Source: Pseudeuparius sepicola
Lineage: Eukaryota; Arthropoda; Insecta; Coleoptera; Anthribidae
Assembly: GCA_963920635.1 (NCBI GenBank)
Contig: OY987298.1
Coordinates: 118,906,035-118,970,034 of the forward strand
DNA: 64,000 nt
Direction of reading: 5' to 3'
The notes under the pieces were generated by a model that was given only the letters and a program-made list of their open reading frames with translations, did no database searches and had not been told where the DNA came from. A program made the translations under genes and the position numbers. Positions 31,246-60,281 of the stretch are shown here, in pieces (positions within the stretch are counted from its first letter, which is position 1; every line of letters begins with the position of its first letter).

Positions 31246-31400
31246 GAATTCTTATAGTCAAAACTCCACAATCAGTTTCTTTAATGAAAACTGTACATGT
31301 TTCGAACCTCTAAGCGTTCATCATCAGCAGTAAAATTACTTTAGTGATAAATGACAAAGCTAGAAAAAGGAAAAGGTGAAATACAGGCAAAAAAGGAAAC
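31246..31400 (-). mobile_element. Solo terminal fragment of a Penelope-like element
   Basis: Read on the minus strand the text parallels the 3' end of the PLE at 37.9 kb: a hammerhead, then AAAGAAACTGATTGTGG (compare AAAAAGAAATTGTGGGA there). No reverse transcriptase or GIY-YIG sequence adjoins it, so it is an isolated terminus. Confidence 0.6.
31290..31331 (-). ncRNA. Hammerhead ribozyme motif, family C
   Basis: On the minus strand the order is stem I ACUG, core CUGAUGA, one extra U, stem II GAAC/GUUC around an 8-base loop, core GAAA, self-complementary stem III A-CAUG-U, cleavage triplet GUA, then stem I CAGU. Stem I pairs 4 of 4. The short palindromic stem III is the form known from PLE termini, which is thought to act as a dimer. 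Confidence 0.8.
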
Positions 31401-32276
31401 TCGATTACCTTACCTTCTAATCAACTCTGAAGATATTAAATCATTTTAGTAAACTTCGAAACGAAAATTAATACATATATATGACATATACAGGGTGTAT
31501 CTTTGATAGGTACAGAAATTTTAACCACGTAATCGGGGACGTTCATAAAACCGAAAAATGAAAAAAAAATTTTTTTTAATCGATGTTTAGAAAATGGGGC
31601 AAATCAATCTTTATCCGTGCTCAATGCACGCCGCTGGATCGTCACTAGAAGCGCTGAGAGGGGAGGTCTAACCTCTCCCTAGGAGATGGAGGGGAATAAC
31701 GTTAGATTAGGAAGGGGAATACCGCGACGTTGCCGCATGTCAGAGTGGAATAAATCTGCTTGCAGAATTAGGTACCTAGGTACCTTTGAAAATTACTGCT
31801 GGTAGGTATCCACGTTTTTTTATGATGTCGGTTGCTGTGACGAACTGTTTATTGCTTTCTTCACAGGCGCACACAATAATTTAACAAACACGTCAGTTTT
31901 TATCACTTTACTGTTATTTTAAGTCCCTAGGCAGCAGAAATGTATCCGAGCGCCGCTCGGAGAAGTCATTGCTAGAAAACTCATTGCTGATTTCACACTC
32001 ATAATTTTTTGACAAGTCTTTTGTGGAGTAGGTATCTACCTACCTACCTATTTTACAACTGATTTTCAGGCCGCAATTTTTTTATACTAATAATTAGCCA
32101 TCTCTTGGGACACCTTGGGATAATAAATTTCTGATCGGCAATCAACTGAATAAAGTATTTGTTTTAAAATACAAATTATCTGTAAAAATTGCAAATTTCC
32201 ACAACCACCCATAGGGTAGAGCGTAGAGCAGCGGCGCGTTACTTTTTTTTAGCGAGTGTTCGCCTGTAGCCCTATC

Positions 32277-32840
32277 ATCTCGAAAAAAGTGGGGGAAGAC
32301 TGTAATTTGACGTGAATTTAACGCGCGGCTTCGATTTGTTCATAGTTTTTAATATTTTTCAACCCTTGCCCGATAGTGCGCCACCTTTAAACCCCCTCGG
32401 GGTTGTGGTCCTATGTATTATCTACTTTTAAAAGTTATTCGTTTCCGAAAAAAGTGGGGGAAGACTGTCATTTGATGTGAATTTAACGCGCGGCCCCGAT
32501 TTGTTCATCGTTTTTAATATTTTTCTACCCTTGCCTGATGGTGCGCCACTTTTAAACCCCCTCAGGGTTGTTGTCCTGTCTATTGTCTACTTTTAATAGT
32601 ATATTACACACCGAGGTGTCTCGAGATAAAGTAAACTTTCCACCCGGGCGGGAGGGCGGGAAGTAAAAGTCAAAAAATTGACACTTTCAAACTTCTAAAA
32701 AGTCAGAAATGTCGATATTACATACATGGTTGTAAATAAAAAATTATTCGGTTCCGAAAATAGTTGGGGAAGACTGTCAAATTGGCGTGCTTATCATTTC
32801 CGCATTTTTTAACCCTTTGCCGTTTCGGAACTCTCTCAAG
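32277..32840 (+). repeat. Three diverged direct repeats inside the 3.56 kb element
   Basis: Copies start at about 32281, 32446 and 32755 with CGAAAAAAGTGGGGGAAGAC or a variant. The first two continue through TTAACGCGCGGC, ATTTGTTCAT, TGCGCCAC and TTTAAACCCCCTC with a 165-base period. The third is shorter. Confidence 0.75.
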
Positions 32841-33951
32841 TTAATTCCTTACCATTCCTCTTACTTTTCGTAAAAACTTGGTGGCGAAATGTCGCGTAAT
32901 GTCCCCAAAAACCGAAAAACAGCGACTCCTCCTGGTGAATTTAAGCTTCTGCGTGCCCTTGACTACTGCCCGACATTCCTTCGCCGAGATTCGCCAGGCG
33001 CGGGCATATGACGTTGGCGTCGGGCGCTGGCGTCCGACGCCAACTTCACACAAAAACGACGCCGCGCCGAATCGCGCAATAATTACAATTACGAATGAAT
33101 TCACTGGCACTGATTCACTCGATTTTGCTCCATTTCCACGCCGCCCGGCCCGGCCGACCTACTAAATTACAGCTGGGCGAGGAGCGCAAGCGCGGGGCGC
33201 CACTTGACATCGACACTACAGGTGATCCCCACTACTCATAACTAGTGCGCGATATTAGCCAATCGCGGCTCGCGGCTCGCGGCCCCTACTTCTCTCGGGG
33301 CGGCGCTACTATGTTGCCAAGTGTGCTGAAAATTTACCTGATTTAGTAATTTAATTCCATATAAATTTAATTGTGTAGTGGATTTTTACATGGATTTACC
33401 CGTTTTTGTGCGTAATAATTATACGAGATAGTAGATTAACTTATAACGAAAGAAACCCCGTATAAATCCGCGAAAATCAAAAATCGGATTTAAGGGACTT
33501 TAAGTCAGTTTGGGGACATGTCGGCATAAACGGCAACACCGAATAGTGGTATTGAATGGTATGGGGGAAAGCTTGTGCGCCGTCACCGTACCGCCGCGCC
33601 GTAGCCGACGCGCTAGTCGAAGATCGTCCGTCCGATTATTATGGGATTTAACAGCTGATTGATATCGATCCGCGTCCGCCTGTAATTTTTGGGAGCGCCA
33701 GCTTCAACAAGCAATTTATTATTATACAGAATGCCTTACGTGTGGCTATTCTGTGGTATAACAATTCTGTTTCCAAAACGTGGACGCGTATGCAAACGTC
33801 GCGTCTCGCTAACCGATATTGTTCCGTTACTTTGCTTTGTTTTACGAACTGTCGTCGGAACTGAACCTGCTTCTGTACATTTTTCCAGATCCGTTCGCCA
33901 TTTTTTTGGACCAGCAGTGATGTCCAAACCTGTTGCAATTGCCGCTACGAA

Positions 33952-34790
33952 TTTGCAGTGAAATAACAAGTGATTTTTTCATATTTCCGTTAAGAAATGC
34001 AGTGTTAAACTTTCGCGGCCTTCGTATGAAAACAGTGCTAGATAGGTTCCTACTAGGTACCCCAATTACGCGCGAGGATAAAAGAAGCAGCTTCAAGGGT
34101 TCGCGAAAATTCGGGTTTTATTAGACGCATACGGTATGGATCTAATTGTACAATCCACCTAGTCGAGTCCCCGTTGGAATAAATCAGCTGAGGGAAACCG
34201 AGACGTCCCTAATATTTGGCATCGCGCCGCTTTAAGTGTGCAGTGAAAAAAAAACAAGTGTTTTGTTCGTATTTCCGTAAAAAGAGACTATGAAGTGTTA
34301 TACCTTCGCGACCATCGTATAAAAACAGTGCCACTAGTTAGGTAGGTACTTAGTGCTTTATGTGATTTTGTGAAGATTTTTGGATAGTATCTAAACACAA
34401 GAAAATAGTAAAAATAATCGATGCATCTCAAAGGTAGGCTTTTTCATGCTATTCGTCGAGCTATTCGCTAAAAGAACCTTTAAGGAGTTGTCCAAAAATT
34501 ATTTATTTATTTATTTAATCTCCACATACACCAAATGATACATGGTTGCGTCAATATTCTTCAAATACTGCGAAAAAGCCTCGGAAAAAGCGATTCGACT
34601 GGCAACCAGTTACCTAGTGCTTCTTGTGATTTTCGAGAGGATTTTTGGATAACATAAGAAAGGAGTACGACACCCGCAAGGAAAATCATCCAGGCATCCG
34701 AAAGGTAGTTTTTTTGCATGCTATTCGCTAAAAGAACCATTAAAGATTTGTTCAAAAACTAGTTGAAAGACTATTCCTGAAATACTGTGA
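33952..34790 (+). repeat. Two further pairs of diverged direct repeats
   Basis: The pair at about 33952-34075 and 34222-34350 shares GCAGTGAAA, ACAAGTG, ATTTCCGT, CTTTCGCG/CCTTCGCG and AAAACAGTGC. The pair at about 34350-34480 and 34610-34760 shares TGTGATTTT, GATTTTTGGATA, AAAGGTAG, CATGCTATTCG and GCTAAAAGAACC. Spacing of about 265-270 bases links all four as one degraded tandem unit. Confidence 0.65.
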
Positions 34791-35046
34791 AAGAGCTATA
34801 CGTCTGACAACGCTGCACGGCGGAATTGGGGGGGATCCGCCGGAACCGGCCTCAGTTCCAGCTGGTCCCGGCAAGGTCAAGGACCCATGGCCGTAGCGTC
34901 GGAAAAAGGGGTTTTAATAGCGTTTTAAAAAAAATTATTTCTGACGTTAATATGCACTTTAGAAAAATTTTAATTGCATAGGCGTAACAAGTGCATTTTT
35001 CCCGACCTGCCCTTAAAATTTCTGTACTTATCAAAGTTACACCCTG

Positions 35047-35086
35047 TATATATATATATATGACATATATATATATATATATATAT
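35047..35086. repeat. (TA)n tract at the right edge of the 3.56 kb element
   Basis: An AT dinucleotide run interrupted once by TGACATA. A near match to that context (ATATATGACATATA) also sits just left of the element at 31476-31490. Confidence 0.9.
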
Positions 35087-35381
35087 AATTACAAGAAAAG
35101 GTGATAATGGGCAAACACTCAAAGTTAACAAAAAGAAAAAACTAGTAACCGCATACACGTGTTTCATGCTATTTGCTATTTGCTGACTGAAGCTGCAAAT
35201 GTGCTGTTGGCTCCTGCCTGGACTTCATTTGTTGCTTCCCAAATCATGCCTATCTTTTGATTTGGTTAATGTTACACCGTACTGATGATTGCCAAATAGC
35301 ATGAAACACGTGTATGCGGTTACTAGTTTTTTCTTTTTGTTAACTTTGAGTGTTTGCCCATTATCACCTTTTCTTGTAATT
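35087..35381. mobile_element. Small inverted repeat bearing a PLE-type terminus
   Basis: The arms 35087-35175 and 35291-35381 are essentially perfect inverted copies of about 90 bp (ACAAGAAAAGGTGATAATGG, ACACGTGTTTCATGCTATTT). The spacer is about 115 bp. It lies between two (TA)n tracts. The right arm plus spacer carries a complete hammerhead; the left arm carries only the GAAAC and stem III half. It looks like an inverted duplication of a PLE end that broke within the ribozyme. Confidence 0.75.
35276..35320 (+). ncRNA. Hammerhead ribozyme motif, family D
   Basis: Order: stem I ACCGUA, core CUGAUGA, extra U, stem II UGC/GCA around CAAAUA with an unpaired U on the far side, core GAAA, self-complementary stem III A-CACGUG-U, triplet GUA, then stem I UGCGGU. 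Stem I pairs 6 of 6, including one G-U wobble. Stem II is short, so activity is less certain than for the other families. Confidence 0.7.
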
Positions 35382-35411
35382 ATTACATTTACACTCGCTA
35401 ATCTTACATCG

Positions 35412-35435
35412 TTATATATATATATATATATATAA

Positions 35436-35469
<34 letters not shown>
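35412..35469. repeat. (TA)n tract left of the PLE palindrome
   Basis: An AT dinucleotide run interrupted by ACG near 35434-35437. A matching tract lies at the other side of the palindrome (37963-37997), so the PLE probably inserted into or expanded a TA microsatellite. Confidence 0.9.
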
Positions 35470-35473
<4 letters not shown>

Positions 35474-35562
35474 TGAAGGGGGACCCCATGTGGGTTATTC
35501 ATATTTTAGAAAGGAAATAAAGGAAACAGACCTCAGTCCCACAATTTCTTTTTAATTCAAAA

Positions 35563-35603
35563 AGCTACCGGTTTCGTAACTCCCAAAGTTACATCATCAG
35601 GCT
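35563..35603 (-). ncRNA. Hammerhead ribozyme motif, family A, left copy
   Basis: This is the inverted copy of the motif at 37864-37904 and reads in the same direction as the left PLE copy, downstream of its GIY-YIG gene. Stem I AGC/GCU, core CUGAUGA plus extra U, stem II GUAACU/AGUUAC with loop UUGGG, core GAAA, stem III A-CCGG-U, triplet GUA. Confidence 0.85.
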
Positions 35604-36094
35604 AAAGCTATAATAAAAGGAGAATAAAGCTAAAAAAGGTCAGCAGCAATGCTAATCAATGACTGATATTAATTTAACAATTAATGAGTAAAAAATTCGT
35701 TCATTTACTTACAAATATCATCAAGAGCTGTACCGTTTTAAGAATGGAGTCTATTATAGTCATTGCACTAACTACTAGCATTTATATAACTAAATTTAAA
35801 AGGTAAGACAAACTAAGACAAGGGACATACAGATTAAAAATTCTTGTTAGGTCTATCTACGGCGGCGTAATAGCTGTAGGTGTTTCGAATTGGTTCTAGA
35901 ACATTTTTTATACAAAATTTTTTAATGGCTACGTATTTTGATGTTGGCGGCGCCCCCCATTGGCAAAGGTGGGAGCTAAGTCTTAGGAGAGAATTAGCAT
36001 TTACAGGTAACCTCAATATTTCCGAAAAACTAAAAGAAGAAACCGACAGTGCAGAAAACCCAACAGAAGAGTTAGGTATAGGTAGCTATTATAA

Positions 36095-36856
36095 TTATTC
36101 AAAGAAAATAGAGAAAGTTGGTGAAGATTCAAAATTTATTTGGGAGTTTAACGATTTTTCATTATTCAATTTTACTTGTCTAAGAATCTCAAAAGACTCT
36201 AAGTTATTAAGAAAACAACCTCTATGGGCTATGTGTAAAATTTTAAAATCACGTTTCGGGTCAAAATCATGCTGATTATCATATAAATGTTTAGAAAAAT
36301 GTGAGAAGCAACTTGAAAGTGGGTTTAAAGCCCTTTGATGTTCCTTTAATCTGGTTCTGAAATTACGAAAGGTTCTACCAATATAAGAACAATTACATGT
36401 CGAACAAATCAGTTTATAAACACCTTTAAGATCCATTCGATCAGTTTTATCTTTATTGTTTAACAGTAATCTACCCAATGAGTTTGAACTTTTAAACGAG
36501 ACTTTAACGTATCTTTTGAAAATATTAGAAATTTTATAGCTTACTGGGCCACAGTAAGTTAATGAAATATATTTATTGGTTATATTCGAGTCGACTGTAG
36601 GTTGAGGTAAATGTTGATCGCTTTGATAACGATGTATATAAACAGAATTTTGCATTATTTTATTTTGTTTCTTAGATAATAATTTACTAACTAATTTATC
36701 ATCGTAGTTGTGTTGTAAAGCAATTTGAGATACAATATGTAACTCTTTATTAAAAGAATCCTCTGAGAGGGGGACTTTAATTAATCTATCCAGATAAGAA
36801 TTAAATGCAGCCAATTTATGAGATATAGGGTGTTTGGAAAAATTATCGATCAACAT
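36095..36856 (-). pseudogene. PLE C-terminal fragment: RT linker plus GIY-YIG endonuclease (left copy)
   Basis: The open frame covers 253 residues of a Penelope-like polyprotein and lacks the reverse-transcriptase palm. Residues 1-80 (ISHKLAAFNSYLDRL, IALQHNYDDKLV) are the thumb/linker region. Residues 81-140 carry YCGPVSYKISNIFKRY. The GIY-YIG endonuclease follows: GVY at 145-147, YIG at 158-160, with RTRLKEH at 167-173. Cys151 and Cys154 with His186 and His190 form the CCHH-type zinc pattern known in PLE endonucleases. The domain is intact, but the gene is 5'-truncated and the initiating Met is accidental. The family nicks target DNA to prime reverse transcription. Confidence 0.9.
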
Positions 36857-37372
36857 TTACCTCAACCTACAGTCGACTCGAATATAACCAATAAATATAT
36901 TTCATTAACTTACTGTGGCCCAGTAAGCTATAAAATTTCTAATATTTTCAAAAGATACGTTAAAGTCTCGTTTAAAAGTTCAAACTCATTGGGTAGATTA
37001 CTGTTAAACAATAAAGATAAAACTGATCGAATGGATCTTAAAGGTGTTTATAAACTGATTTGTTCGACATGTAATTGTTCTTATATTGGTAGAACCTTTC
37101 GTAATTTCAGAACCAGATTAAAGGAACATCAAAGGGCTTTAAACCCACTTTCAAGTTGCTTCTCACATTTTTCTAAACATTTATATGATAATCAGCATGA
37201 TTTTGACCCGAAACGTGATTTTAAAATTTTACACATAGCCCATAGAGGTTGTTTTCTTAATAACTTAGAGTCTTTTGAGATTCTTAGACAAGTAAAATTG
37301 AATAATGAAAAATCGTTAAACTCCCAAATAAATTTTGAATCTTCACCAACTTTCTCTATTTTCTTTGAATAA
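36847..37372 (+). pseudogene. PLE GIY-YIG endonuclease fragment (right copy)
   Basis: From HLPQPTVDSNITNK onward this is residue-for-residue the same as the left copy (its residues 82-253): GVYKLICSTC, CSYIGRT, RTRLKEH, then the C-terminus ending PTFSIFFE. The upstream linker is missing because the palindrome joint lies just before it. The frame opens about 30 bases earlier in spacer sequence with an unrelated leader. It is non-functional on its own as a retroelement. Confidence 0.9.
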
Positions 37373-37863
37373 TTATAATAGCTACCTATACCTAACTCTT
37401 CTGTTGGGTTTTCTGCACTGTCGGTTTCTTCTTTTAGTTTTTCGGAAATATTGAGGTTACCTGTAAATGCTAATTCTCTCCTAAGACTTAGCTCCCACCT
37501 TTGCCAATGGGGGGCGCCGCCAACATCAAAATACGTAGCCATTAAAAAATTTTGTATAAAAAATGTTCTAGAACCAATTCGAAACACCTACAGCTATTAC
37601 GCCGCCGTAGATAGACCTAACAAGAATTTTTAATCTGTATGTCCCTTGTCTTAGTTTGTCTTACCTTTTAAATTTAGTTATATAAATGCTAGTAGTTAGT
37701 GCAATGACTATAATAGACTCCATTCTTAAAACGGTACAGCTCTTGATGATATTTGTAAGTAAATGAACGAATTTTTTACTCATTAATTGTTAAATTAATA
37801 TCAGTCATTGATTAGCATTGCTGCTGACCTTTTTTAGCTTTATTCTCCTTTTATTATAGCTTT

Positions 37864-37904
37864 AGCCTGATGATGTAACTTTGGGAGTTACGAAACCGGT
37901 AGCT
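37864..37904 (+). ncRNA. Hammerhead ribozyme motif, family A, right copy
   Basis: Core CUGAUGA at 37867-37873, one extra U, perfect 6 bp stem II GUAACU/AGUUAC with loop UUGGG, core GAAA at 37892-37895, palindromic stem III A-CCGG-U, triplet GUA and 3 bp stem I. It lies about 490 bp downstream of the GIY-YIG stop in sense orientation, the expected place in a PLE terminal repeat. Confidence 0.88.
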
Positions 37905-37959
37905 TTTTGAATTAAAAAGAAATTGTGGGACTGAGGTCTGTTTCCTTTATTTCCTTTCT

Positions 37960-37962
<3 letters not shown>

Positions 37963-37997
<35 letters not shown>
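37963..37997. repeat. (TA)n tract between the PLE and a transposase fragment
   Basis: An uninterrupted AT dinucleotide run. The PLE right arm ends in it and the transposase relic starts directly after it. Confidence 0.9.
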
Positions 37998-37999
<2 letters not shown>

Positions 38000-38306
38000 C
38001 ATGTTCCAAAAAATGTAGGTATCAGCATTGAGCCTCTGTGGAAGTTCATAGAGACCCAAAATTCCACACCAAATATTTATTGAAAATTCGTGTTGAAAAT
38101 GGTGTTGTCTTGGCAAATGGGGATTTTCTAATTCCCAAGAATGGTTAAAAACCCCTCGACGTGTGAATGTCTCTTCGTCAGTAAATATTATTTTGTTGTA
38201 AAACATCGGATGTCTATTTTGTTGGCGTCGAAAATAGCGTGAAAATTGAAGCCGACGTAAGAATTCTTGTGGCAAGAAGCACTGGACAAAAATGATATGG
38301 ATACAA
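37998..38306 (-). pseudogene. Fragment of a Tc1/IS630-type DDE transposase
   Basis: The minus-strand translation runs HIIFVQCFLPQEFLRRLQF, then NKIIFTDEETFTRRGVFN, ENPHLPRQHHFQHEFSIN and WCGILG. This is the region around the first catalytic Asp (FTDEETF) of DDE_3-type transposases common in insects. It ends at the (TA)n tract before the second Asp and the Glu, so only about a third of the protein is left. The upstream limit is where the next foldback begins. Confidence 0.75.
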
Positions 38307-38315
38307 TTTTTCTCC

Positions 38316-39330
38316 GGTTAGCGGCCTTATGCGACTATAAATTTTGGCAACTGGTAATATCATACCAACATCCCATTTCTAATGGATGTGCCGGTGCTTT
38401 CATATTTGAATCGTTCGGGAAGGTAGACTATGACAGCTGTTTCCCCTTATTAGGTTCATCAAGACAGCCATAACCCTCTCGAACGACTCAAACCGAAACA
38501 GTAGCACTTATAACAGTGTAGCTTACACTTGGAGGTGAGAACCAACCAGTGGCGCCATCTAGTATCAGGCTGATAGCACCAGAGCCGAAATTTCACAAAA
38601 CATAATAAACACCAACAAGAAAGTTAGTTGGTGTTGAATCCAGAAAACTACAAAATAATGTGAAGAAGAAGCGACGGCTATGGCTGTCTTGATGAACCTA
38701 ATAAGGGGAAACAGCTATCATAGTCTACCTTCCCGAACGATTCAAATATGATATTACCAGTTGCCAAAATTTATAGTCCCATAAAGCCGCTAACCTTCTT
38801 TTTGTAAAAATCTATTGGGGACGTGAAATTTTTATCATTTTTAATATTTCTACGGCTATAAGATGCAAGTTTCACAAGGATAGGGCTCCCGGCCAGATCC
38901 TTGTTGATTTCCACAAATTTGGAAGATACAGTGGTGAATGGCCAATGAGCCTGTTTTCTGTGTCGCTTCTTCTTCACATTATTTTGTAGTTTTCTGGATT
39001 CAACACCAACCTAACTTTTTCTTGTTGGTGTTTACTATATTTTGTGAAATTTCGGCTCTGGTACTATCAGCCTGATACTAGATGGCGCCACTGGTTGGTT
39101 CTCACCTCCAAGTGCAAGCTACACTGTTATAAGTGCTATTGTTTCGGTTTGAGTCGTTCGGGAGGGTTATGGCTGTCTTGATGAACCTAATAAGGGGAAA
39201 CAGCTGTCGTAATCTACCTTCCCGAACGATTCAAATATGAAAGCACCGGCACATCCATTAGAAATTGGATGTTGGTATGATATTACCAGTTGCCAAAATT
39301 TATAGTCCCATAAAGCCGCTAACCTTCTTT
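38316..39330. mobile_element. Foldback FB-4 with an internal partial third copy
   Basis: The left arm (about 38316-38660) and right arm (about 38962-39313) are inverted copies: GGATGTGCCGGTGCTTTCAT, GATCGTTCGGGAAGGTAGA-like text, AACCAACCAGTGGCGCCA and GTGAAGAAGAAGCGAC. A partial third copy (38660-38830, from GGCTATGGCTGTCTTGATGA) repeats the outer part in the right-arm orientation and matches 39166-39370. No transposase is seen inside, but a DDE fragment abuts the left edge. Confidence 0.75.
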
Positions 39331-40509
39331 TTGTAAAAATCTATTGGGGACGTGAAATTTTTATCATCTTTATAATATCTTTAATTCACTAGGTTTTTAA
39401 AAATACAAGTATGGCTAAATAACCGCATTAATGCCATGACCGCAGTCTACCTTGATTTTTCTTGTTCATATTTCAAAGCCAACTTGCGAATTGTTTTTTA
39501 AATGCCGTCCTCGGGGGTTGTACACCGATCCATAAACTTGCTTTTATTTCGAAAACGGTTAGGATTTTCGAGTTTTAACAGGTTTTTTGTCTAAAATTAA
39601 AGGTACTTTCATAAAAACGAGTGTAAATTGCCCTAACTGATCGAACAAAAAATTTTATACTTAGTGAATTTATAAGACGAGAATGGAATATATCGCGCCC
39701 TCTAGCGGCAAACAGTAAACCGATAAACTATTTGGATTTCTCGACCAAAAACATATGCATGTCTATTTTCCGAAATTGATTTTTCGACTTTAACGCCCTG
39801 TAGAACGGAAACGAGCAACATTTGTATAAGGCATATTTGGCTAAATCGTCATATTTTGACGTCAAGAATGTCCCCTTTAGAAATGTCCCACACATTTTGG
39901 GACACCCTGTATAGTCAGTTGGAACAAATACCACCTACCCGATGGAAACCGTATGTGCTTCGTTAGTTTAGTACCTATATACGGAGTCCCGGGGTCGAAG
40001 CCCCGTCATTTTTTTCAACTGATTATCCTTTACTTGATATGTCACAAAAACATCCCTCTTTATTTATGCAGGTGCCTAGTAATATAGAACATTAAATTTC
40101 TTCCTTAATAAAATGAGAATTACAGCCGAAATACGCCAGTGCCGTTTTTTCATTTCTTGGGCAATTCCCAAGGGATCATTTGTCACGGCTTTTAGTGCTT
40201 CATAAAGTAGCATGAAATTAAAAATAATTTACGTCTGGATGACAAATTGCTTCTGTAATCAGATCAAAAACGCGCCAACGGAATACTGTAAATTGCCCTT
40301 AACGATATTGTGGATTTGAAATTAGATATGCATCGTCGTCTCCGGAATAAAGTAGTGCAGAGAATATTACCCACGATAAGAAAAGAACTTTTATTTCCAG
40401 AGTGGAGCTTGATGAAAAGGCATCGTTGACACTTAAATCTTTTACTGCCGTGAAAGTGAATAAAAAAGAATGGGAACGGTATACTGAAATATAGCAGTTA
40501 TCTACAACA
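39331..40509. other. No gene recognised
   Basis: AT-rich sequence with a CACCCTGTA end motif at 39903-39911, preceded by CCCACACATTTTGGGA, and a weak tRNA T-arm-like hairpin near 39990-40005. Confidence 0.35.
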
Positions 40510-40920
40510 GGCAAAAAATTATAAGGCACGTTTATGTATTTAAGTTTAGGAATCCATCATAACATAGCAATTCTAATTTTAAGTTTCCAATTATGAAGAA
40601 GTATATGTATACTTACACAAACGTCTATGCCACTTTGGCTAAAGTTAATTTAAATTACAAAATTACTTACTGATGGCTTATAATCCTCAAACATTTAGTT
40701 TTGGCGGCAAGAGAAGAACCACCAGCCCCCAGCTAAGCATAATATCCCGAAAAAGTATCCAAGTACCATATACTGGCACCTATCCCCGTGTCAGATCAAA
40801 ATATCGTGTCAAAACTTGGCTCCCACACAGGGCGATTTCAGTGTCACGTATTTTATAATCCCTATAGAACTTTGACTCTTTCCTGGGATTTTTTATTGAA
40901 AGGCCCCTACTTAACACGGA
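40510..40920 (+). repeat. Dispersed repeat R2, copy 2
   Basis: This is the partner of 2275-2680 in the same orientation, with shared words in the same order (CCAATTATGAAGAAGTA, TTAATTTAAATTA, CAAAATTACTTAC, ACCATATACTG, CGTGTCAGA, CGTATTTTATAAT). It is unrelated to its present neighbours. Confidence 0.65.
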
Positions 40921-41814
40921 ACAGAGGCACAGGGGAACATCGTAAATTTGAAAATGTGAAAGAGCAGTTAGTAGAAAGACTGCCTGCTTTTCGAAATCAA
41001 ATGCAGCTGTACTGGTTCCGATCTATCAATTAATTGCTTTTCTTATCTCCCACCACACATGAGCCTGTTTTAAAGGGCCTCCAAACCCAGTTAAAATTTA
41101 TTACTTATATCGAGTCTTCCTCTCCATTGTTTCCTCGGTCGGTTCCGCCGGGTCCACCATGATACATTAAACACTGCATCACTGGGGAGGCTGAAACCTT
41201 ACGTAATGAGAAAATAGAAATAGATTTAGGAGCGTAACAGTTGTTAATAGATTTGAGCAGAACTAAAGGTAAAATAAATTGTTATTAATGGTGGGCATTT
41301 AAGATTTTGTTTGTATTATTTGGGATTACACGAATTCCGAATTCCTACCTTTGTATTCATTAGTCAATCCAGGGGATTACTTATTCCTCCAAACCAGGAT
41401 TATCCCAAAATTCGGATGCAAAAGCTTCATCTAGATTTGCTTTCCCAAAATCCGAGACGTGTTTTCTAAGTGAAAAAACCAGCTCGTATGAAACTGATGA
41501 GCTTGGAGCAGGTCAAAATCTGACATCTGGGATTAGGCCGGCCACAATTCGACATCTATATTATTATTATTATTGGCCCGGTGAAAAAAAAAACAAGTTT
41601 CCATTCTCTTCTATTCAGCATTATTAATAAGCTAATTGCCTGCAAAATCGTCTTTTAAATACATTATATTTCAAAATTCCCCGTTTCCTTTAAGAAACCC
41701 CTATAGGTACCTATCATTGCCAGTTAGACACTACATAATTTTAGTAGAGCCTCTCGTACACCCTTTGTAATGAAGTAGCTAAATTAAAAGTCTAACAATC
41801 CTTCCATGTAATCA
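40921..41814. other. No gene recognised
   Basis: Unassigned AT-rich sequence with a short ATT run near 41562-41574. No protein or RNA homology is seen. Confidence 0.35.
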
Positions 41815-51500: not shown

Positions 51501-51638
51501 CCTTCGCATTGGCAGCCACCAGTAAAGTGGTGTTGTTTTGTTGACTTTTAACTCTAAAGAACATAAATAAATTTTATGCCATATGAAAGCTTGAATTTTT
51601 CTCTACAAGATAAGGTGAGGTTGCCTACTACAGGGTGG
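48506..51638. other. No gene recognised
   Basis: AT-rich unassigned DNA without repeat partners in this window that I could find. Confidence 0.35.
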
Positions 51639-52337
51639 GCCCAATAACCAGCAGCCAGCATTTTAGGACGCGGTGGGCGGTGGACTTCCGCCGTAACCAG
51701 CGTCCAAGAGCGGTACACGAGGATGACGCTTCGCTGGCAATTGAATGTATGTATGTACCTACAGGGTGATCCAAATTGGTCACTTTTAGGAAGTTTCTTC
51801 TATTTCTCGATTACCTAGTCAAAAAGTAGCTGGAACTCCATTTTCGAGAAAAGTTTAATGCCGCAAGCCGCATGTTGATATCTTGATTAGTTTAGGAGAT
51901 ATAGGGTGTTTCTCAAAATGTCTCTTTTTCTTCAAAGTCCCATAACTTTTTTATCATGCGGCCGGCTCTTGGACTATAAATATTATTTAAGATCTTTTCG
52001 ACATATTATGTCATATATGTTTGGTCCAGCCGTTGTTGCAATACAGGGCTTTCAACATTTTATTTTTTCATGTTTTCATACTTCGTGTTTTGGAAAACGT
52101 TTGCCGAGTATAAGAAAAAAAATGACGAAAATATTGCCCCCAAACCACAATACACAGATAACGGTATGTCAGGTAGGCGAACGAAAATGAAACTCTTCTG
52201 CGCACCTACGTCACTTGCGACAGAAGCACGGCCAACTTATAAAAAATAGTCGCAAAAATGGTCGCACTGATATACGCCGGTTAAAAATTTCACTCAAGTT
52301 AAATTGAATTTTTTTAAATTTTGATGTTACGAAAATG
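51639..52337. other. Transposon-end-like sequence with two CAGGGTG motifs
   Basis: TACAGGGTG motifs lie at 51639-51647 and 51760-51768, followed by ATAGGGTGTTTCTC at about 51901. The stretch 52013-52235 is an inverted, diverged relative of about 53460-53815 (shared GTCCAGCCGTT/GCCAGCCGTT, TTTTTTCATGTTTTCA, AAACGTTTGC, GAGTATAAGAAAAAA, ATAACGGTATGTC). The two are probably arms of one degraded element. Confidence 0.5.
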
Positions 52338-52480
52338 AAATGTCGACTTGTGTGATCCAAAACTGTAAAAATTTCACTTTGAAGGCCAAAGGGAAGTAAC
52401 ACAAAGTATATTCCCAAACATCCAGAATTAACAAAGAGATAGATTGGGGCTTTTGGCCGAACATTTATAATGGATTTAAA
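52338..52480 (+). pseudogene. Degraded THAP zinc-finger fragment
   Basis: The frame from the ATG at 52340 gives STCVIQNCKNFTLKAKGK and then a stop. After a frameshift it continues KYIPKHPELTKR and IGAFG. The CxxxxC start and the later PKHPEL / W-A-like text are the pattern of a THAP domain (C2CH), the DNA-binding module of P-element-type transposases and their host derivatives. Only about 45 residues remain, with a frameshift and two stops. No catalytic part was found nearby. It is likely the relic of the element whose arms flank it. Confidence 0.55.
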
Positions 52481-53459
52481 CACAGGTATAGTAAGTGCCA
52501 TAGTAGGTATCATTATCTAAATAAGTAGCGGAGGGTAATATGGAATACTGTTTTTTTCTATAACAGTAATAATTTTTTCTAGGTGTAGTATAATGCATTA
52601 GAAACTTCATCGACTACTGCATTAACTATCCATCTAAGCAAATAAAAGTCTGGAATTTCAAAACCTTTACATAAGAAAAAATGGCTGGGTAATATGTAAT
52701 ACCCCTATAGGAACATGAAATACTATACATAAACTAAAAAATATATACTTATAGGGACATTTTAGCGAGAAAAATCACAAATGTTAATATCCTGAGTTCA
52801 AAGTTCCATCTTGCACACTGAATCCAGTTTTTTCCTCTTGCTACAGTGTAGTAATAAACACTGCTTTCCTCATATTTTCCTCATTCCACTTTTTGTGTTT
52901 TTTATTCATGTGCTCCAATAATACTTCTGCAACAGAAGAAAATAATTTTTAAATCACGCCCGGGTAATATGGAATACTCTTCCATATTAGCCGCACCATT
53001 GAGTAAAAGAATATATATTTTAGTTAGGTAATCCTAACTAAAAACTTAACCTAAACTTAACCCTAACTAAAAATTTACACAGATTTTCTCGCCGGAGATA
53101 GGTGTCGCCGTCTGATATTCTGCACAAGATCTACAAAGAACGGTTTTCGGCCAAGGGGCGGAGAGTAAAATTGCGTATCGAAATAGTCTTAATAAAGAAA
53201 CTAGTTCTTGTAATGTAGGTGTAGTCACTATTTTTTTAGTGCATATACGCGACTGAAAATAAATATTGAAATATTGTCAACATACCAACTCATTAGGTAC
53301 ATGCCTAATGCCTTTTTCAATTAAATAATTTCGATTTCTTTAATGTTACTTTTTAAAAAATATAAAAAACAATGTAGACACCTTGGTATATAGGTGGTTG
53401 CCTAGGTCACTATAAACGAGTCAAAGTTCCGTTCAAAAATAAAAGGCAGCCATGCTTTC

Positions 53460-53815
53460 GTCGCACGAGCGTCACAGCTGACGTCACAGCACCTGCCCGC
53501 GGACATACCGTTATGTGTGTATCGTGCCCCAAACGTCAACGGTCATTTTTTGTAATCATCCAGATAAAAAAGTTGCGATTGGTCCAGGGCACAATAATTA
53601 TTATTATAGTTTGTGTGAAACGTGTGAAAATACGAACCTTGATTCGGAGTGGATTCAAAATGATTATGAATGTTCCAAGGGCACTATTTTCATCCTTTTT
53701 TCTTATACTCAATTTATCCGCAAACGTTTCATATCACTATGTAGGATGTGAAAACATGAAAAAATGAAGTTTGAATGCTGTATTATTAAAACGGCTGGCA
53801 CAAACATACGAGTTA
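53460..53815. repeat. Inverted relative of 52013-52235
   Basis: The reverse complement repeats the word order of the left arm, with about 130 extra bases in the middle. Short open frames at 53513-53751 cross it and start MCIVPQTS. They have scattered cysteines, but I cannot assign a domain. Confidence 0.5.
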
Positions 53816-54163
53816 CCGTTGCAATCGGGATGAAGCGATGATACGGAAAATTCAATAGTATAGTTTGTACAACAAGAGTGGATAATAATATGTTGTCCAA
53901 ATTTAACGAGGACAAGAGTTGCATAATACGCCGTAGGTGGAGTGCATAAGGGAGATATGGTGATTCCTCTCGAGGTGTAAGTATATTTTTTCCATGATAA
54001 CTTAATAGCTATGATAAACGAATATTTGGATAAACGATGAAAATTATTTGACATACCACACTGACGTTGTGGAAAAAGTAAATTCAAGGGTTAATTTATT
54101 TGCAAACACCTCGAAACGTGTCGGAGAAAGCTTAACTGTGATTGTTGATTTCTATTTCATATA

Positions 54164-57100
54164 CAGTGTGTCCCAGGATAAGTGAAACGAGAGTTGTAAG
54201 AGAACAACCGAGAGAACAACCATTCATTCTAATAATCCATGACGGAAATGAACCATTCTATTTTGCTGAGGAAAATGCTGGGAACACTAGGTATTGGTAT
54301 TGATGATTCGGACGTTATGCTGGTGGGTTTACAAAACTTTTTTTTATTGGAAACAAGTCGATTTTATCTATAAAACGACACAATTCGTAAGTACCTAACT
54401 GAACTTGCACAAATTAGATATCTAGACTTGCTGATATATTAGAGACAATAAAGAACCAACCAGGTGTTACATTTTAGCTGACTATTTTAGATTAGTGGCT
54501 CTGACAAACGATGTTTTACTTGTTATCAAGTATATTCCACCGACTGCTAGTTGTTTGAAGAAACTGATGATATTTTAGCCTCAATACCTAGTGTTAATCA
54601 ACAGCATTGATTGGTTTTAAACTAAACTGAGAAAAGTCAATCCTATAGACGTCAAGCACTTACCTGGTCCGAATATAAAAAATTTATTACTTTAATTTCA
54701 TGAGCCCTTACTTACAGAATTAAGTTAGTAGTTAGACCTGCATCGGTTCAAAAATGTAACGCTAGAATATTGGAGAAGGTGCCAGTTCTTGGTGATGTTA
54801 GAAATATAACATGTAAAACGCAATAAAGCCAAGTTTTCAGTCGAAAAACTTTATTGTCATAGCTTGAACTATTTTAGACCCATTTAGGTAAAGTATATTG
54901 CCGAAGCATCCTCATAAAAAATGACATAATTCTTTAGAATTTTTTCACTATACATATTATATATTTTTTCTGGAAAATAAATTCATAAGCATATTTTGTG
55001 ATTGTGGTTAATGGAAGTTAAAAAGAAAAAAATATCATGCAGCAGACGGCCAAAAATAAAGATTTCTTTAATTTGCAAGAAAAAAACATAATTTTGCATT
55101 CTATGGCAAAACCCCAAATAAGTTATCTACTAAATTTAGTGAAAATATTCCAAAATCAAATAATACAGTTTTCATGTCGCATACACAGGGTGTAACAAAC
55201 TGGATGTTTTTTTGGGGGTTTCTTCTATTCTGCGAAGAGATAGACAAAGAGTAGGTAGGTGTACTGTGCTCGATTTTTGAGGGCAGTGGAAAGCAGTTGA
55301 ATCTCAAAATCTCGATTCGTTTTGGAGATACAGGGCATTTTTCATTTTTTAACATGTCAGACAGTCCCTCCTTGTAATACGTTTTGATTTTTGCCAAAAA
55401 TCTTCCTTCATACAACTTCAATGTATAATAATTATTGAGGTAAAAGGTAAATCCTCGAAGGTAGACTTTCATATTTTTTTATTGCACTTGTGTTGACTTT
55501 TTCCAATATAACAATCTACTGATGTTGTCCATGATTCTTCGCTATTTCCAGGAAGTCAGCAAAGAAAAGCAATACCTTGCTTACATTCATCTAAAATAAG
55601 TTTTCCATTAATATGTACCTACCTGCAAAAATTTGACAAGCGTAGTTCTATTATTAGTTGACAAAGTTAATGTCACTAGTGCAGAAAAGTACAACTTTCC
55701 GCATCAAAATGGATGCGACAAAGTGTACTACTACGGACTTAATTACTTAAATACTTCATTAGATCATACAAGAAAAAAATACCCGCAAAAAGTAGTCATT
55801 GACAGTCAAGCACTTGATATTGAATGAAACTCTGCTGTCGAACTTGCATTGTCTTTAGATTATTTAAATTAGTTCTGAATCATGGTTTTCACATGTAGGT
55901 ATCAACGATCATTTTCATAAATGCATGCTTTTTTGTTTTGCTAATCGATTTCAACATTGGGGTGTGCGACACCCCCACTCCCCTCCCCCATATCTTAACT
56001 ATAGGTATATACACAATAAGTATTTCTTTACTGTACTAGCAACTAAACTAGAAGCACAAAAAACTGTATCTACGTTTATGCCACGATGTATGATCCTCGT
56101 ACATCGTGGTATGTGCATAATTTAGGACTAATCTGCTTATGTTGGGTAATTATTACAACATAATATACCTACTTCCACAACTATTCAGTTGAATTTCTTC
56201 ATTTTTAACCACAGTATCATTAACATTTTTCTTATTAATTTTGTGCTCGGGGGTAATTTTTGCCTTAACCGTGCATTATGCATTCATTGCTATGTTCTTT
56301 CCTCTGCGTGTCTCCAATAACATTGTTACCATAATATTTATTCTCTAGTCTACCTAAAACCAGAATTTAAGCTATATCATCATCATTAAGCAATATTAAA
56401 ACAATATACAAATCAAATAACAAACATACCTCTTCATTTCTCCAAGTTTTGCTCCCCGTTTTTATTGATAAAATTGACACACCATATCAAAATATATGCA
56501 AGGCAAGTTATCAGGACAAGCTTTAACAAATCTTGTCTTCTTTATAAACCGAAAAAATAAAGTATTCACAGCAAGATTCTTTTAAAACTGAGAATAGAAT
56601 TTATTTAGTTTTCACTAAAGTTATTAACCTTGGTTTCCGCGTTCCGCGGGCGAAAGTGAGGTTATGCAAAGCAAAGTGCGGCGTTGCCGACGATTTTCTT
56701 TAAAGAATTGAGTAATATGTCATCTGTCATATTTTATTGGGGACATCTAATAAGTTCAGAATGGGATCAGTAAAATCCAAATATTTCATTGAAATGCTCC
56801 GAAATTTGATTATTTCTCATCAGGCGCATACAAACTGAATCTAATAATTTGCCTGGGAATGCTTGGTTATATAAAAAAAGACGAAATAAGTACTAAGAAA
56901 ATAGCAGGTACTTATTGAAATTAGGGATCGTGACGTCACATTCCCTATTTTTGCGACCGTTTTTTTTTTCAATTTTTGAGCAAACTAATGGGGAAAAAAT
57001 CTGTTGGTTGGGTTTCGTGATTATCTAGACATGTTTTACAAATTCCAAGGCAAAAAATTATTTTTCATTCCTAAGTATACTTGTCTATTAGCCAACTTTG

Positions 57101-57694
57101 ATTTTCGTCCATTTTATTTCCTATAGATAGGTGAAATATCCTTGTCCTTTAAAATATCGAAAAATTTCATTAGAAAAAGTTGCTTAGAATTGAAAACTAT
57201 GACCCTGTGTCAATTTTCAAAATAATTAGCCTACTTTGATTTTTGTCCACTTTATTTCCTATACCAATAACAAATAATAGTAGGCCGATTGAGTCCAAAT
57301 TTCGCAGTCTTGCATACTTTTTTATTATGAATTTCTTTTTCTAATTTTTCGATATTTTAAACGACAAGGATAGTTCACTTGCTTAAAGGAAATAAAGTGG
57401 ACAAAAATCAAAGTAGGCCAATTATTTTGAAAATTGACACAGAGTCGTAGTTTTCAATTATAAGCAACTTTTTCTAATGAAATTTTTCGATATCTTGTCG
57501 AGAAAGGACACTTAACCTACACAGAAAATAAATACCTATATCATTCCTGTCAGGGCCTACTTTAGTTTTCAAAATTAAAAATATGGTGAAGATTATTTTC
57601 AAGGCAAGCAGGCGTGGATCCCAAATGGCCAAATTCGAACTCGAAAATTTTTGGTCTTTTACACCTCTCTTTTCACTTATCCTGGGACACACTG
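54164..57694. mobile_element. 3.53 kb TA-flanked inverted-repeat element with CAGTGTG ends
   Basis: The left end CAGTGTGTCCCAGGATAAGT and the right end are inverted copies, identical for about 28 bases and similar for about 50, each preceded by TA. The interior has no recognisable transposase. It contains an internal end-like word (ACACAGGGTGTAAC near 55188) and a cluster of inverted and direct repeats at 57.1-57.5 kb. The length nearly equals that of the element at 31.5 kb, but I see no shared interior. Confidence 0.65.
57086..57500. repeat. Complex inverted/direct repeat cluster
   Basis: The arms 57152-57260 and 57387-57493 are inverted copies differing at only a few positions (CGAAAAATTTCATTAGAAAA to TTTGTCCACTTTATTTCCT). 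A direct partial copy of the outer part lies at 57086-57130 (GCCAACTTTGATTTTCGTCC). A further inverted partial copy lies at about 57330-57375. Confidence 0.8.
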
Positions 57695-58135
57695 TATATA
57701 ACTTAGCCATTCTGTACGTTGTAAAGGAAACGACAAATAAGATGAGAAGCTGGCTATATCTCGGAAATTGCTTAGCGCAGGACTTCCAGATTTTCTTTTT
57801 ATTATAGTAAATGCAGCCTGGAAAATATTTTCAAGTTCCTAAAATGACCGCTAGGGGGCTCAATGTCCATAGCCAACTGGGAAAATTAAGTTTTTCCGAA
57901 ATTTTAAAAAAATGGTACTTACTTAAAATATTTCCATATTAACCCCAAGAAGATTCTATACATTTTGTTTTACACATTTTTGTATATCCCCGTTGACTGA
58001 AAAATTGTTCAGTCAACGGATACACGCAAATAATTCGAAAAACTTCTCTGAAGAATTTCTCAATGGCTGGATAAAAAATTAAAGAAACTTAATTTACCGC
58101 AAAAACGCATTGACATTTTTGTTTGAATACAATAC

Positions 58136-58147
58136 ACTAGCATAAGT
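58136..58147 (+). repeat. Target-site duplication of the second PLE, left copy
   Basis: ACTAGCATAAGT; the right copy is 60282-60293, overlapping the end of the right terminal repeat by one base. Confidence 0.85.
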
Positions 58148-58240
58148 GACTAGTTGATATGTTATTTTCCAGTGTTTATTCAAACAAATAGTGGTAGTTT
58201 TCGGCTTACGGAAAAATTAAAACAAAGTTTGATGTTATTC

Positions 58241-58276
58241 GCGACGGTTCGTTATATTTAATAACTTCTTCAGGCT
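58241..58276 (-). ncRNA. Core-mutated hammerhead, family B, 3' terminal copy
   Basis: It is the same as 60186-60222 except that the conserved GAAA reads GAAC, replacing the adenine (A15.1) that pairs across the core. It is in sense orientation downstream of the GIY-YIG gene. This copy is predicted to be inactive. Confidence 0.75.
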
Positions 58277-58728
58277 AAAAAAGACAAAAAACAGTAAATA
58301 CTTATAGTGTGCTAATTCAAACACAACGACTAGCACAATAAATAATGAGACAATTTTAACTTACACACTAAAAAATTTACAAAAATACAAACAAAATAAA
58401 ACCAATAGCGAGAGGGCACAAAAGACTTACCGACAACTAATCTTCTGTCATAATTATCTATAAACAGCCAATTATTATTAACACACATTACAGGCAACAT
58501 TTTAGTTATTCAGTCAGGTATTTTAAGTTTTATTATTTTATTAAAAACACGATGTAGTTCGATGGGAACGATTTTCGTTGAATTCTGAACTGGATTTTAA
58601 CGGCGGGCTAGTAGTTTTTTGGTTGGGTTTAGCAAAAAACACGAAATCACTCCCACAAACCACTTCCTCCCGGCTTAAGGTGAGTGTGTATCTACGATAT
58701 TGTGGTGGCAATAAATCAACAGTGGGCA

Positions 58729-59247
58729 TTACCTCAACCCTTTGTTACCCATCACTGTAGACATCTTAATCAAATTTGTGTAAATAATGCTGAGATTGTG
58801 TGTGTCCATTCTATTATTAATGGAGTTTGGATGTCGATTGATATATATCATTTCTTTAAAAAGTCTCTTGGAATAAGTTGGTTCAGAATCCAAAATAGTA
58901 GTGTCATTAAATTTAAAGGTGTGATCTTTACTAATACAATGTGCACACAGTGCCGTACTTTCTTTACCCTTACGGCAGTCATTTTTATGGTTATTGATTC
59001 TGTTCCTGATATAATTTTTAGTTTGTCGTATATATACACCATCACATTGTGAGCAAGGAATTTTGTAGACCACTGAAGACAATCTGTCAAACTGTTCTTT
59101 CTGTTTAAGCCTCGAAAACACACTAAAATTTTTGTGAGGGTAATATGATGTAACATCAAATTTAGATGGATTAAGCGCACGTTTTAATTGTTGGAATAAG
59201 GTTGGTATGTAAGGTATTTTCGCCCAAGGGGTTGTTCTTTGTGGCAA
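58729..59247 (-). pseudogene. PLE GIY-YIG endonuclease domain (second PLE)
   Basis: The 172 residues contain VVYKIPCSQC, then GVYIRQTKNYIRNRINNHK, the GIY-YIG core with its zinc cysteines. The glycine of the second signature is replaced by arginine (YIR instead of YIG), which should impair it. ALCAHC and DHTFKF precede the C-terminal helix region (YSKRLFKEMIYINRHPNSIN). The frame is the same as the upstream RT segment. A single TAA codon at about 59269-59271, where CAA repeats predict Gln, separates them, so the two were one protein. Confidence 0.88.
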
Positions 59248-59268
59248 TTGTTGTAGCTGTGATTGTTG

Positions 59269-60082
59269 TTATTGTTCTTGGGATCTAGGTGAACTATTAA
59301 ATATTTTATTTATTAAGTGCAATGGATAGCCATTATCTTGTAACAAGTTAGATAAAATGACCGTATTTTTATGTAAGAACTCTGGGTCACTCAATTGCTT
59401 GATCCTATGGAGAATAGTCTTGATAGTGGCTATCTTGTGTGTATTGGAGTGGGAAGAATAGAAATTAAGCAATCTACCAGATGCTGTGGGTTTGAAATAC
59501 CAATCAGTAGAGATAGTTCCGTTGCTGTTAATAATACTGAGATCAAGGAAAGCAATCCTGTTATTTGTCTCAGTTTCGATCGTAAATTGTAGATGTGAGT
59601 CGTACTGGTTAAAAGCATCAAGAATTACTTGTTGTGTTCCTTGGGGGATGGCAGTCAACATGTCATCCACATAAACTTTGAAAAAAGGTGTATGAAAAGG
59701 TAATTCAGGTAGGACCTTAACGGTTAAAAAGTGTAAAACAATCTCAGCAAAAATGGGGGAAGAGGGAGCCCCCATAGGAGCGCCTTTAATTTGATGGTAA
59801 TATTTGTTGTCATAAGCACAATACGCACTGTCAAAAATTAGATCTACCAAAGACACAAAAGAGTCGAGGCCAATGGAGGTATGTTGTGATATTTCTGGCC
59901 AGATGGAACGAATGTCGAATGCCTTCAACCACAAGATGTTTGGGAATGTTGGTGAAGAGTGAGACAACGTCGAGACTAACAAGGACATAACCCTCAGGTA
60001 AATCATTGTGTCTGAAAAACTCAGCAACATCAAAAGAATTCCTCACTGAGTTGACAAACAAATGCCTTATTTGGTTCAACAC
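59269..60082 (-). pseudogene. PLE reverse transcriptase, 5'-truncated and frameshifted
   Basis: The first part (frame at 59831-60082) reads FFRHNDLPEGYVLVSLDVVS LFTNIP, the RT motif A region. A frameshift near 59900-59930 leads to the second frame (59269-60033), with YHQIKGAPMGAPSSP (motif B) and FKVYVDDML, the catalytic Asp pair of motif C, still intact. Then come IETETNNRIAFLDLSI and YFKPTASGRLLNFYSSH, typical PLE palm/thumb text. The N-terminal fingers are missing. Defects are truncation, one frameshift and the TAA before the endonuclease; the copy is dead but not old. Confidence 0.9.
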
Positions 60083-60185
60083 GTGTGTTACGAATTTCTC
60101 GGTAATATATGTTGGACTGTTGATGAAAGATGTCGTTGTGTTTGAATTAGCACACTATAAGTATTTACTGTTTTTTGTCTTTTTT

Positions 60186-60222
60186 AGCCTGAAGAAGTTA
60201 TTAAATATAACGAAACGTCGCG
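60186..60222 (+). ncRNA. Hammerhead ribozyme motif, family B, inverted 5' copy
   Basis: Stem I AGC/GCG (two pairs), core CUGAAGA at 60189-60195, one extra A, stem II GUUAU/AUAAC with loop UAAAU, core GAAA at 60212-60215, then C-G-U-C. Stem III is just the self-complementary ACGU without a loop, so it could only form between two molecules. Cleavage triplet GUC. The orientation is antisense to the PLE genes because this terminus is inverted. Confidence 0.82.
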
Positions 60223-60281
60223 AACAACATCAAACTTTGTTTTAATTTTTCCGTAAGCCGAAAACTACCACTATTTGTTTG

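What the first reader, a model, noticed from the sequence alone, without database searches (positions are those of the whole stretch)
31290..60222. Five well-folded hammerhead ribozyme motifs plus a mutated copy, in four sequence families, all in PLE-type termini
Positions are 31290-31331 (-), 35276-35320 (+), 35563-35603 (-), 37864-37904 (+), 60186-60222 (+), and mutated 58241-58276 (-). Each has CUGANGA, a paired stem II, GAAA, a palindromic stem III (ACAUGU, ACACGUGU, ACCGGU, ACGU) and a GUA or GUC cleavage triplet. The self-complementary stem III is conserved as a property while its sequence differs among families, which argues for selection for dimeric cleavage. Hammerheads in PLE terminal repeats are established knowledge; four families within 30 kb is notable.
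Basis: partly seen in the sequence, partly recalled or inferred. Interest (0 to 1): 0.85.

Follow-up and report, generated by a model that had tools for sequence, protein, structure and literature searches.

The report
Hammerhead ribozymes in Penelope-like retroelements
Four truncated jumping-gene copies, two of them clearly Penelope-like, each end in a small RNA motif of the self-cleaving hammerhead kind; this is a known property of such elements, but in three of them the motif sits at a nearly constant distance from where the copy ends.

Summary
The motifs are real and not chance. A core plus stem II search finds five sites in 64 kb; 100 simulated windows gave 23 in all. All five sites (four families) have a loop-free palindromic stem III, against 1 of 23 simulated sites. 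F3 and F4 are 5'-truncated Penelope-like elements (PLEs) by coding sequence; F2 shares their end anatomy; F1 is probable.

The six motifs sit in four apparent insertions. Three are head-to-head pairs with 3' ends outward, one tailed and one tailless; the 35563 and 37864 motifs are two arms of one insertion.

PLE minimal hammerheads cleaving as dimers are already published, so the central interpretation is known. Two corrections: the motifs carry an extra residue after A9 (in F2 readable as a U.U mismatch), and a canonical-core scan found none; and no two same-family motifs found here lie on one strand, so these copies cannot form the double hammerhead in cis.

One modest new observation: tailed ends lie 97, 97 and 95 nt after the cleavage site in F2, F3 and F4, near the 85-92 nt derived from published Anolis numbers; F1's likeliest border lies at 108. 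The host genome could not be searched.

The parts
31290..31331 (-). F1 hammerhead: stem I ACUG/CAGU 4 bp, extra U after A9, stem II GAAC/GUUC, stem III ACAUGU palindrome, cleavage after GUA (H17 at 31294)
31186..31474 (-). F1: probable 5'-truncated PLE 3' end, single copy, between short TA runs at 31178-31185 and 31475-31482; borders inferred
   Evidence: inference
35085..35411 (.). F2: head-to-head pair of very short ends of PLE anatomy; tailless end at 35085-35088, tailed end at 35411; (TA)n on both sides; no coding sequence
35276..35320 (+). F2 hammerhead: stem I 6 bp, stem II 3 bp plus U.U mismatch (or one extra U on each side), stem III ACACGUGU, cleavage after GUA (H17 at 35314). The left partner copy is cut off inside the hammerhead.
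35469..37966 (.). F3: head-to-head pair of 5'-truncated PLE copies, 1120-nt arms 100% identical; tailed end left (35469), tailless end right (37963-37966); (TA)n on both sides
35563..35603 (-). F3 left hammerhead: stem I 3 bp, extra U after A9, stem II 7 bp (one search count, G-U allowed), stem III ACCGGU, cleavage after GUA (H17 at 35566)
37864..37904 (+). F3 right hammerhead, identical to the left one, opposite strand (H17 at 37901)
36095..36856 (-). F3 left copy: short end of RT part and GIY-YIG endonuclease (Pfam PF01541 22.9 bits, cutoff 22.6)
36785..37372 (+). F3 right copy: GIY-YIG part of the same protein, more truncated
58148..60281 (.). F4: 5'-truncated PLE copy on - strand plus an inverted end at its 5' side (arms 58177-58330 and 60132-60285 as aligned, 3 mismatches of 154); tailed end left, tailless end right
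58136..58147 (+). F4 target-site duplication, left copy, 12 bp, exact repeat of 60282-60293
60282..60293 (+). F4 target-site duplication, right copy
60187..60221 (+). F4 right hammerhead: stem I 2 bp only, extra A after A9, stem II 5 bp, stem III ACGU, cleavage after GUC (H17 at 60219); antisense to the F4 reading frame
58241..58275 (-). F4 left hammerhead with core change GAAA to GAAC; sense to the F4 reading frame
59272..60042 (-). F4 reverse transcriptase part (YVDD box seen by eye); ends at an in-frame TAA (59269-59271)
58729..59268 (-). F4 endonuclease part, same frame after the stop; GIY-YIG weak (15.3 bits, below cutoff 22.6), YIG box reads YIR (by eye)

Best explanation
Four insertions that each end 3' in a minimal type I hammerhead: F3 and F4 are 5'-truncated Penelope-like retroelements, F2 has the same end anatomy, F1 probably too. 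In F2, F3 and F4 the copy stops 62-69 nt (tailless) or 95-97 nt (tailed) after the hammerhead cleavage site. Probable working: PLE RNA is read from tandem or complete copies elsewhere; the PLE protein cuts TA-rich target DNA on both strands, starts reverse transcription at two fixed internal sites about 65 and 97 nt beyond the hammerhead, and the two truncated cDNAs meet head to head. The hammerhead can cleave the RNA when two copies pair through their palindromic stems III, or with help of the protein. Shown here: motifs, their orientation, head-to-head pairs, the F4 target-site duplication, (TA)n at F2 and F3, the spacing. Inferred: cleavage activity, priming on both strands, and the active parent copies.
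For: Motif counts far above simulated windows. GIY-YIG domain in F3 just above Pfam's cutoff; F3 and F4 align with proteins of unnamed sources that carry RT and/or GIY-YIG domains. Three of three pairs have 3' ends outward, one tailed and one tailless. F4 has an exact 12-bp target duplication. All five runs of six or more TA (or AT) units in the 64 kb lie within 25 bases of a border of F2 or F3. Published PLE biology agrees: both DNA strands cut and extended, AT-rich targets, two RT start sites that bound an optional 30-40 bp tail (PMC11167929, main-text section read); inverted pLTRs, 31-bp tail, short TSDs, head-to-head most frequent (PMC3846280, passages); minimal PLE hammerheads and dimeric cleavage (PMC7761336, passages; PMC6466107, passages); palindromic stem III in other animal hammerheads (PMC3088659, passage on its Figure S8).
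Against: No curated Rfam score reached. F4 stem I is 2 bp, its double-hammerhead energy only -3.1 kcal/mol; for F1, F3 and F4 the two-strand MFE is another structure. F4's RT and GIY-YIG stay below Pfam's cutoffs. No named PLE sequence was compared; the name rests on domains, anatomy and literature. F1 and F2 have no coding sequence; F1 has no partner, and its likeliest border lies 108 nt from the cleavage site, not 95-97. Self-priming on an antisense template is a published rival for how head-to-head pairs arise (PMC3846280). In the Anolis PLE the reading frame starts at stem II; here the AUG at that place (F1, F3) meets a stop within four codons.
Confidence: 0.88

Rival explanations
1. Chance matches to a short degenerate motif.
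For: Rfam gives only sub-threshold hits at one place and none at three regions searched alone; a scan with the canonical core spacing finds nothing; the optional extra base was added after seeing the sequences.
Against: Five core plus stem II sites against 0.23 expected per window, 5 of 5 palindromic against 1 of 23, and in the three paired insertions they sit at similar distances from the insertion ends.
Confidence: 0.03
2. F1 and F2 are not PLE ends but animal retrozymes (small non-coding retroelements of about 170-400 nt with type I hammerheads).
For: No PLE protein match at either and lengths of about 290 and 327 bp; metazoan retrozymes are short and of low GC (PMC7229834, passages).
Against: Retrozymes are described as tandem repeats with canonical type I hammerheads; no tandem repeat of such size was found here, the hammerheads are minimal, and F2 has the same tailed/tailless head-to-head anatomy and 97-nt spacing as the coding F3 and F4.
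Confidence: 0.12
3. The perfect inverted pair F3 is an assembly or amplification fold-back artefact rather than one insertion.
For: Arms of 1120 nt are 100% identical.
Against: The arms differ in truncation point (226 nt lie between them) and in tail (one end only), as in F2 and F4, and (TA)n flanks both outer ends.
Confidence: 0.06
4. The hammerhead fold is kept mainly as a landmark for the reverse transcriptase (start-site positioning), with dimeric cleavage secondary.
For: Cleavage site to tailed end 97, 97, 95 nt in F2, F3, F4, whose sequences there are not clearly alike (F2-F3 137, F2-F4 12, F3-F4 62 of 200 shuffles reach the observed score); about 85-92 nt from the published Anolis numbers (111-118 minus 26), where cleavage needs the protein and core mutants still insert.
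Against: Three families only; F1's likeliest border is at 108; common descent of the termini could keep the spacing; a mere landmark would not need the catalytic core and palindromes; in Anolis core mutants insert with unchanged product size, so the exact core does not set the start in vitro.
Confidence: 0.2

Closest known systems
PLE minimal hammerheads that cleave as dimers (Cervera and de la Pena 2014; Lunse, Weinberg and Breaker 2017; neither paper held; known here from reviews and reference lists)
   Same: Type I, little or no stem III of its own, palindromic stem III, located in PLE terminal repeats
   Different: Extra residue after A9 here (whether this is typical of the published set could not be checked); no tandem same-strand pair in this window
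PAc, Poseidon of Anolis carolinensis (PMC11167929, main-text section read)
   Same: Hammerhead near the insertion ends, two end positions separated by a 30-40 bp tail, AT-rich targets; both DNA strands primed in vitro, which could explain head-to-head pairs
   Different: In PAc the reading frame starts at stem II; here the AUG there meets a stop within four codons (F1, F3) or is absent (F4); spacing 95-97 nt against 85-92
Adineta vaga Penelope elements (PMC3846280, passages)
   Same: Inverted pLTRs, about 31-bp tail on one end, short TSD, 5' truncation, head-to-head arrangement
   Different: The word hammerhead does not occur in its main text; its pLTR holds the first codons of the reading frame
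CChMVd viroid hammerhead with an extra A between A9 and G10.1 (PMC3705267, passage)
   Same: Extra residue at the same place; changing it to U raised trans-cleavage 3-4 fold, and F1 and F3 have U
   Different: A viroid, not a retroelement

Membership tests
Hammerhead ribozyme, minimal type I (PLE type) | CUGANGA and GAAA core, stem II, UH cleavage site, stem I open-ended | tested here: met
   Five intact sites, with one extra residue after A9; F4 stem I only 2 bp; 58241 copy has a broken GAAA
Hammerhead ribozyme, minimal type I (PLE type) | Palindromic stem III allowing a double hammerhead | tested here: met
   5 of 5 intact sites; 1 of 23 simulated sites; for F2 the two-strand MFE is the double hammerhead, for F1, F3 and F4 it is not
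Hammerhead ribozyme, minimal type I (PLE type) | Tandem arrangement giving a dimer in one transcript (needed for action in cis, PMC6466107) | tested here: inconclusive
   Not met in this window: no two same-family motifs on one strand. These are truncated copies; the genome, where tandem parents may lie, could not be searched
Hammerhead ribozyme, minimal type I (PLE type) | Self-cleavage | not testable with these tools
   Needs an in vitro assay
Rfam Hammerhead_1 / Hammerhead_HH9 as curated | Gathering score | tested here: not met
   Best 26.5 of 34 and 27.1 of 52 bits, one place only; no hammerhead match
Penelope-like element (F3, F4) | RT with C-terminal GIY-YIG endonuclease | tested here: met
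   F3 GIY-YIG 22.9 bits, cutoff 22.6, almost no RT left; F4 RT-EN aligns with P0003 residues 43-426 of 426 (E 4e-67) and P0002 residues 12-342 of 394 (E 2e-21), but Pfam RVT_1 16.7 and GIY-YIG 15.3 bits are below cutoff
Penelope-like element (F1, F2) | RT with C-terminal GIY-YIG endonuclease | tested here: not met
   No PLE protein match near F1 or F2; they are described as PLE-like ends, not as shown members
Penelope-like element | Inverted or direct pLTR ends with optional tail and TSD | tested here: met
   3 of 4 insertions (F2, F3, F4) have inverted ends with one tail; exact 12-bp TSD in F4, hidden by (TA)n in F2 and F3; F1 inconclusive
Metazoan retrozyme | Tandem repeats of about 150-400 bp with a type I hammerhead | tested here: not met
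   Repeat searches show no tandem repeat at F1 or F2

The most novel reading that the evidence does not exclude
In PLEs the hammerhead is a ruler as well as a ribozyme: the folded hammerhead, bound by the PLE protein, sets the two reverse-transcription start sites at about 65 and 97 nt downstream, so that its fold and position are kept even in copies that never cleave. The 97, 97, 95 nt spacing in three families without clear sequence likeness is what this predicts.
Probability: 0.18. Interest if true: 0.6.

Novelty: new member of a known kind. Interest (0 to 1): 0.27.

Why it matters
[quoted passage not shown] If the spacing between cleavage site and reverse-transcription start sites holds across PLE families, it would tie the ribozyme to initiation of reverse transcription and give a simple genome-wide test. 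As it stands, the locus adds well-preserved examples, including one perfect head-to-head pair, to known biology.

Tried and rejected
A canonical-core scan found nothing; the optional extra base was introduced afterwards. Start codon in stem II, as in the Anolis element: not supported, since from the AUG made by A9, the extra U and G10.1, F1 reads AUG AAC GCU UAG and F3 AUG UAA (read by eye). A pattern search of viral contigs for F3-like motifs gave two hits: L001 looks like chance; L002 has a plausible stem II and extra U but a weak stem I; about that many hits are expected by chance by my own rough estimate, which no call computed. A PLE-protein search of viral contigs gave one partial relative (40% over about 48 residues, L003), not followed. 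The host's own genome could not be searched, so copy number, tandem parents and conservation are untested. The two primary papers on PLE hammerheads are not held; a search for 'HHmini' found no paper.
Full report
Observation. They form four families: F1 31290-31331 (-), F2 35276-35320 (+), F3 35563-35603 (-) and 37864-37904 (+), F4 60187-60221 (+) and its mutated partner 58241-58275 (-). A search for core plus stem II alone gives five sites in the window, and all five have a loop-free palindromic stem III; 100 first-order Markov windows gave 23 such sites, 1 of them palindromic. With stems I and III also required, the counts are 4 against 5 in 200 simulated windows, and 5 against 1 in 60. The controls are simulated sequences with the window's dinucleotide make-up, not exact shuffles, and the descriptor was loosened after seeing the sequences: the first scan, with canonical spacing, found none.

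The motif itself. F1, F3 and F4 have one more residue between A9 and stem II than the consensus (U, U and A); in F2 a U.U mismatch can be read the same way. This may be why Rfam gives only a sub-threshold match at F2 and no hammerhead match at the other regions searched. An extra residue at that place is known from the CChMVd viroid, where A lowers trans-cleavage moderately and U raises it 3-4 fold (PMC3705267, passage). A monomer cannot close stem III properly, because the palindrome leaves no loop; two copies can share a stem III of 4-8 bp. The unconstrained two-strand fold of F2 is exactly the double hammerhead (-23.9 kcal/mol); for F1, F3 and F4 that structure is allowed but not the best one (-15.2, -20.3, -3.1 against -22.4, -25.8, -7.7).

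What carries the motifs. F3 is a head-to-head pair of 5'-truncated copies with 1120-nt arms that are 100% identical; its frame holds a GIY-YIG domain barely above Pfam's cutoff (22.9 against 22.6 bits). F4 is a 2.1-kb copy with reverse transcriptase and endonuclease parts, interrupted by one stop and with YIG changed to YIR (by eye); it aligns with P0003 (E 4e-67) and P0002 (E 2e-21), proteins of unnamed source with RT and, in P0002, GIY-YIG matches, while its own Pfam RVT_1 and GIY-YIG scores stay below cutoff. At its 5' side lies an inverted end of about 150 nt (3 mismatches of 154). F2 has no coding sequence: it is a pair of very short ends (91-nt arms, 100%; the left arm starts inside the hammerhead). 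F1 is a single truncated end. No named PLE sequence was available for comparison. In F2, F3 and F4 the 3' ends face outward, and one end of each pair has an extra tail of 28-35 nt. F4 is flanked by an exact 12-bp duplication. All five runs of six or more TA or AT units in the 64 kb lie within 25 bases of a border of F2 or F3, and F1 lies between two of the 18 runs of four or more.

How it probably works. The purified Anolis PLE protein cuts and extends both strands of AT-rich DNA and starts reverse transcription at two internal sites whose interval is the 'tail' (PMC11167929, main-text section). Two such cDNAs, started on opposite strands and cut short, would give just these pairs: 3' ends outward, truncated 5' ends joined, tail on one side. 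That is inference; self-priming on an antisense template is the published rival for head-to-head pairs (PMC3846280, passages). The hammerhead presumably cleaves tandem PLE transcripts as dimers, as published for PLEs (PMC7761336 and PMC6466107, passages; primary papers not held). Palindromic stems III that allow dimers were noted earlier for other animal hammerheads (PMC3088659, passage). In the Anolis element cleavage needed the protein, and core mutants still inserted.

No two same-family motifs found here lie on one strand, so none of these copies can form the double hammerhead in one transcript; a transcript across F3 would carry one sense and one antisense copy in a 1.1-kb hairpin. The window therefore does not test dimeric cleavage, and palindromes in four families, though well above chance, do not by themselves prove selection for it. 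The six motifs sit in four apparent insertions.

A new detail. Measured from the cleavage site, tailed ends lie at 97 (F2), 97 (F3) and 95 nt (F4), and tailless ends at 66-69, 62-65 and 62-63 nt; ranges reflect bases shared with the flank. The distance derived from published Anolis numbers is 85-92 nt for the RT start (111-118 minus 26). F1, a single copy, has its likeliest border at 108 nt and does not fit as well. In these stretches F2, F3 and F4 are not clearly alike: 137, 12 and 62 of 200 shuffles reach the observed alignment score for F2-F3, F2-F4 and F3-F4, whereas F1 and F3 are alike (2 of 200). I saw no statement of this regularity in what I read. Searches for hammerhead with pLTR (three papers) and for PLE, hammerhead, reverse transcription, tail and insect (two papers) listed PMC11167929 and a review, PMC11722881, that I did not open; the third paper concerns HIV. 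Three families are few, and inheritance of the termini could explain the spacing.

Limits. The host genome could not be searched, so copy number, tandem parents and conservation remain open; the host is not identified.

Noticed in passing
31474-31524 and 35013-35062: A 51-nt repeat (92% identical, inverted) ending in CACCCTGTATA and followed by TA-rich DNA lies directly upstream of both F1 and F2: both landed behind the same repeat.
   Followed up: partly
22733-25222: Tc1/mariner-type transposon: 342-aa open frame on the - strand (23843-24871) with HTH_Tnp_Tc3_2 and DDE_3 domains; inverted repeats 22733-22780 and 25175-25222, and a self-complementary stretch 22784-23573.
   Followed up: no
38316-39380 and 57087-57532: Two clusters of imperfect inverted repeats (86-96% complementary arms), possibly small fold-back elements.
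   Followed up: no
8823-9409, 12380-13343, 18361-20437: Related repeats (about 80-95% identical), some self-complementary, scattered over 12 kb.
   Followed up: no
L002:9868-9898: A viral contig (IMG/VR) holds CUGAUGA, extra U, stem II GGAC/GUCC, GAAA and ACCGGU with GUA; stem I weak, may be chance.
   Followed up: partly
2798-4237: Two open frames (2798-3397, 3785-4237) that look by eye like pieces of a LINE reverse transcriptase; no Pfam match at 1e-3 for the first, the second not scanned.
   Followed up: no
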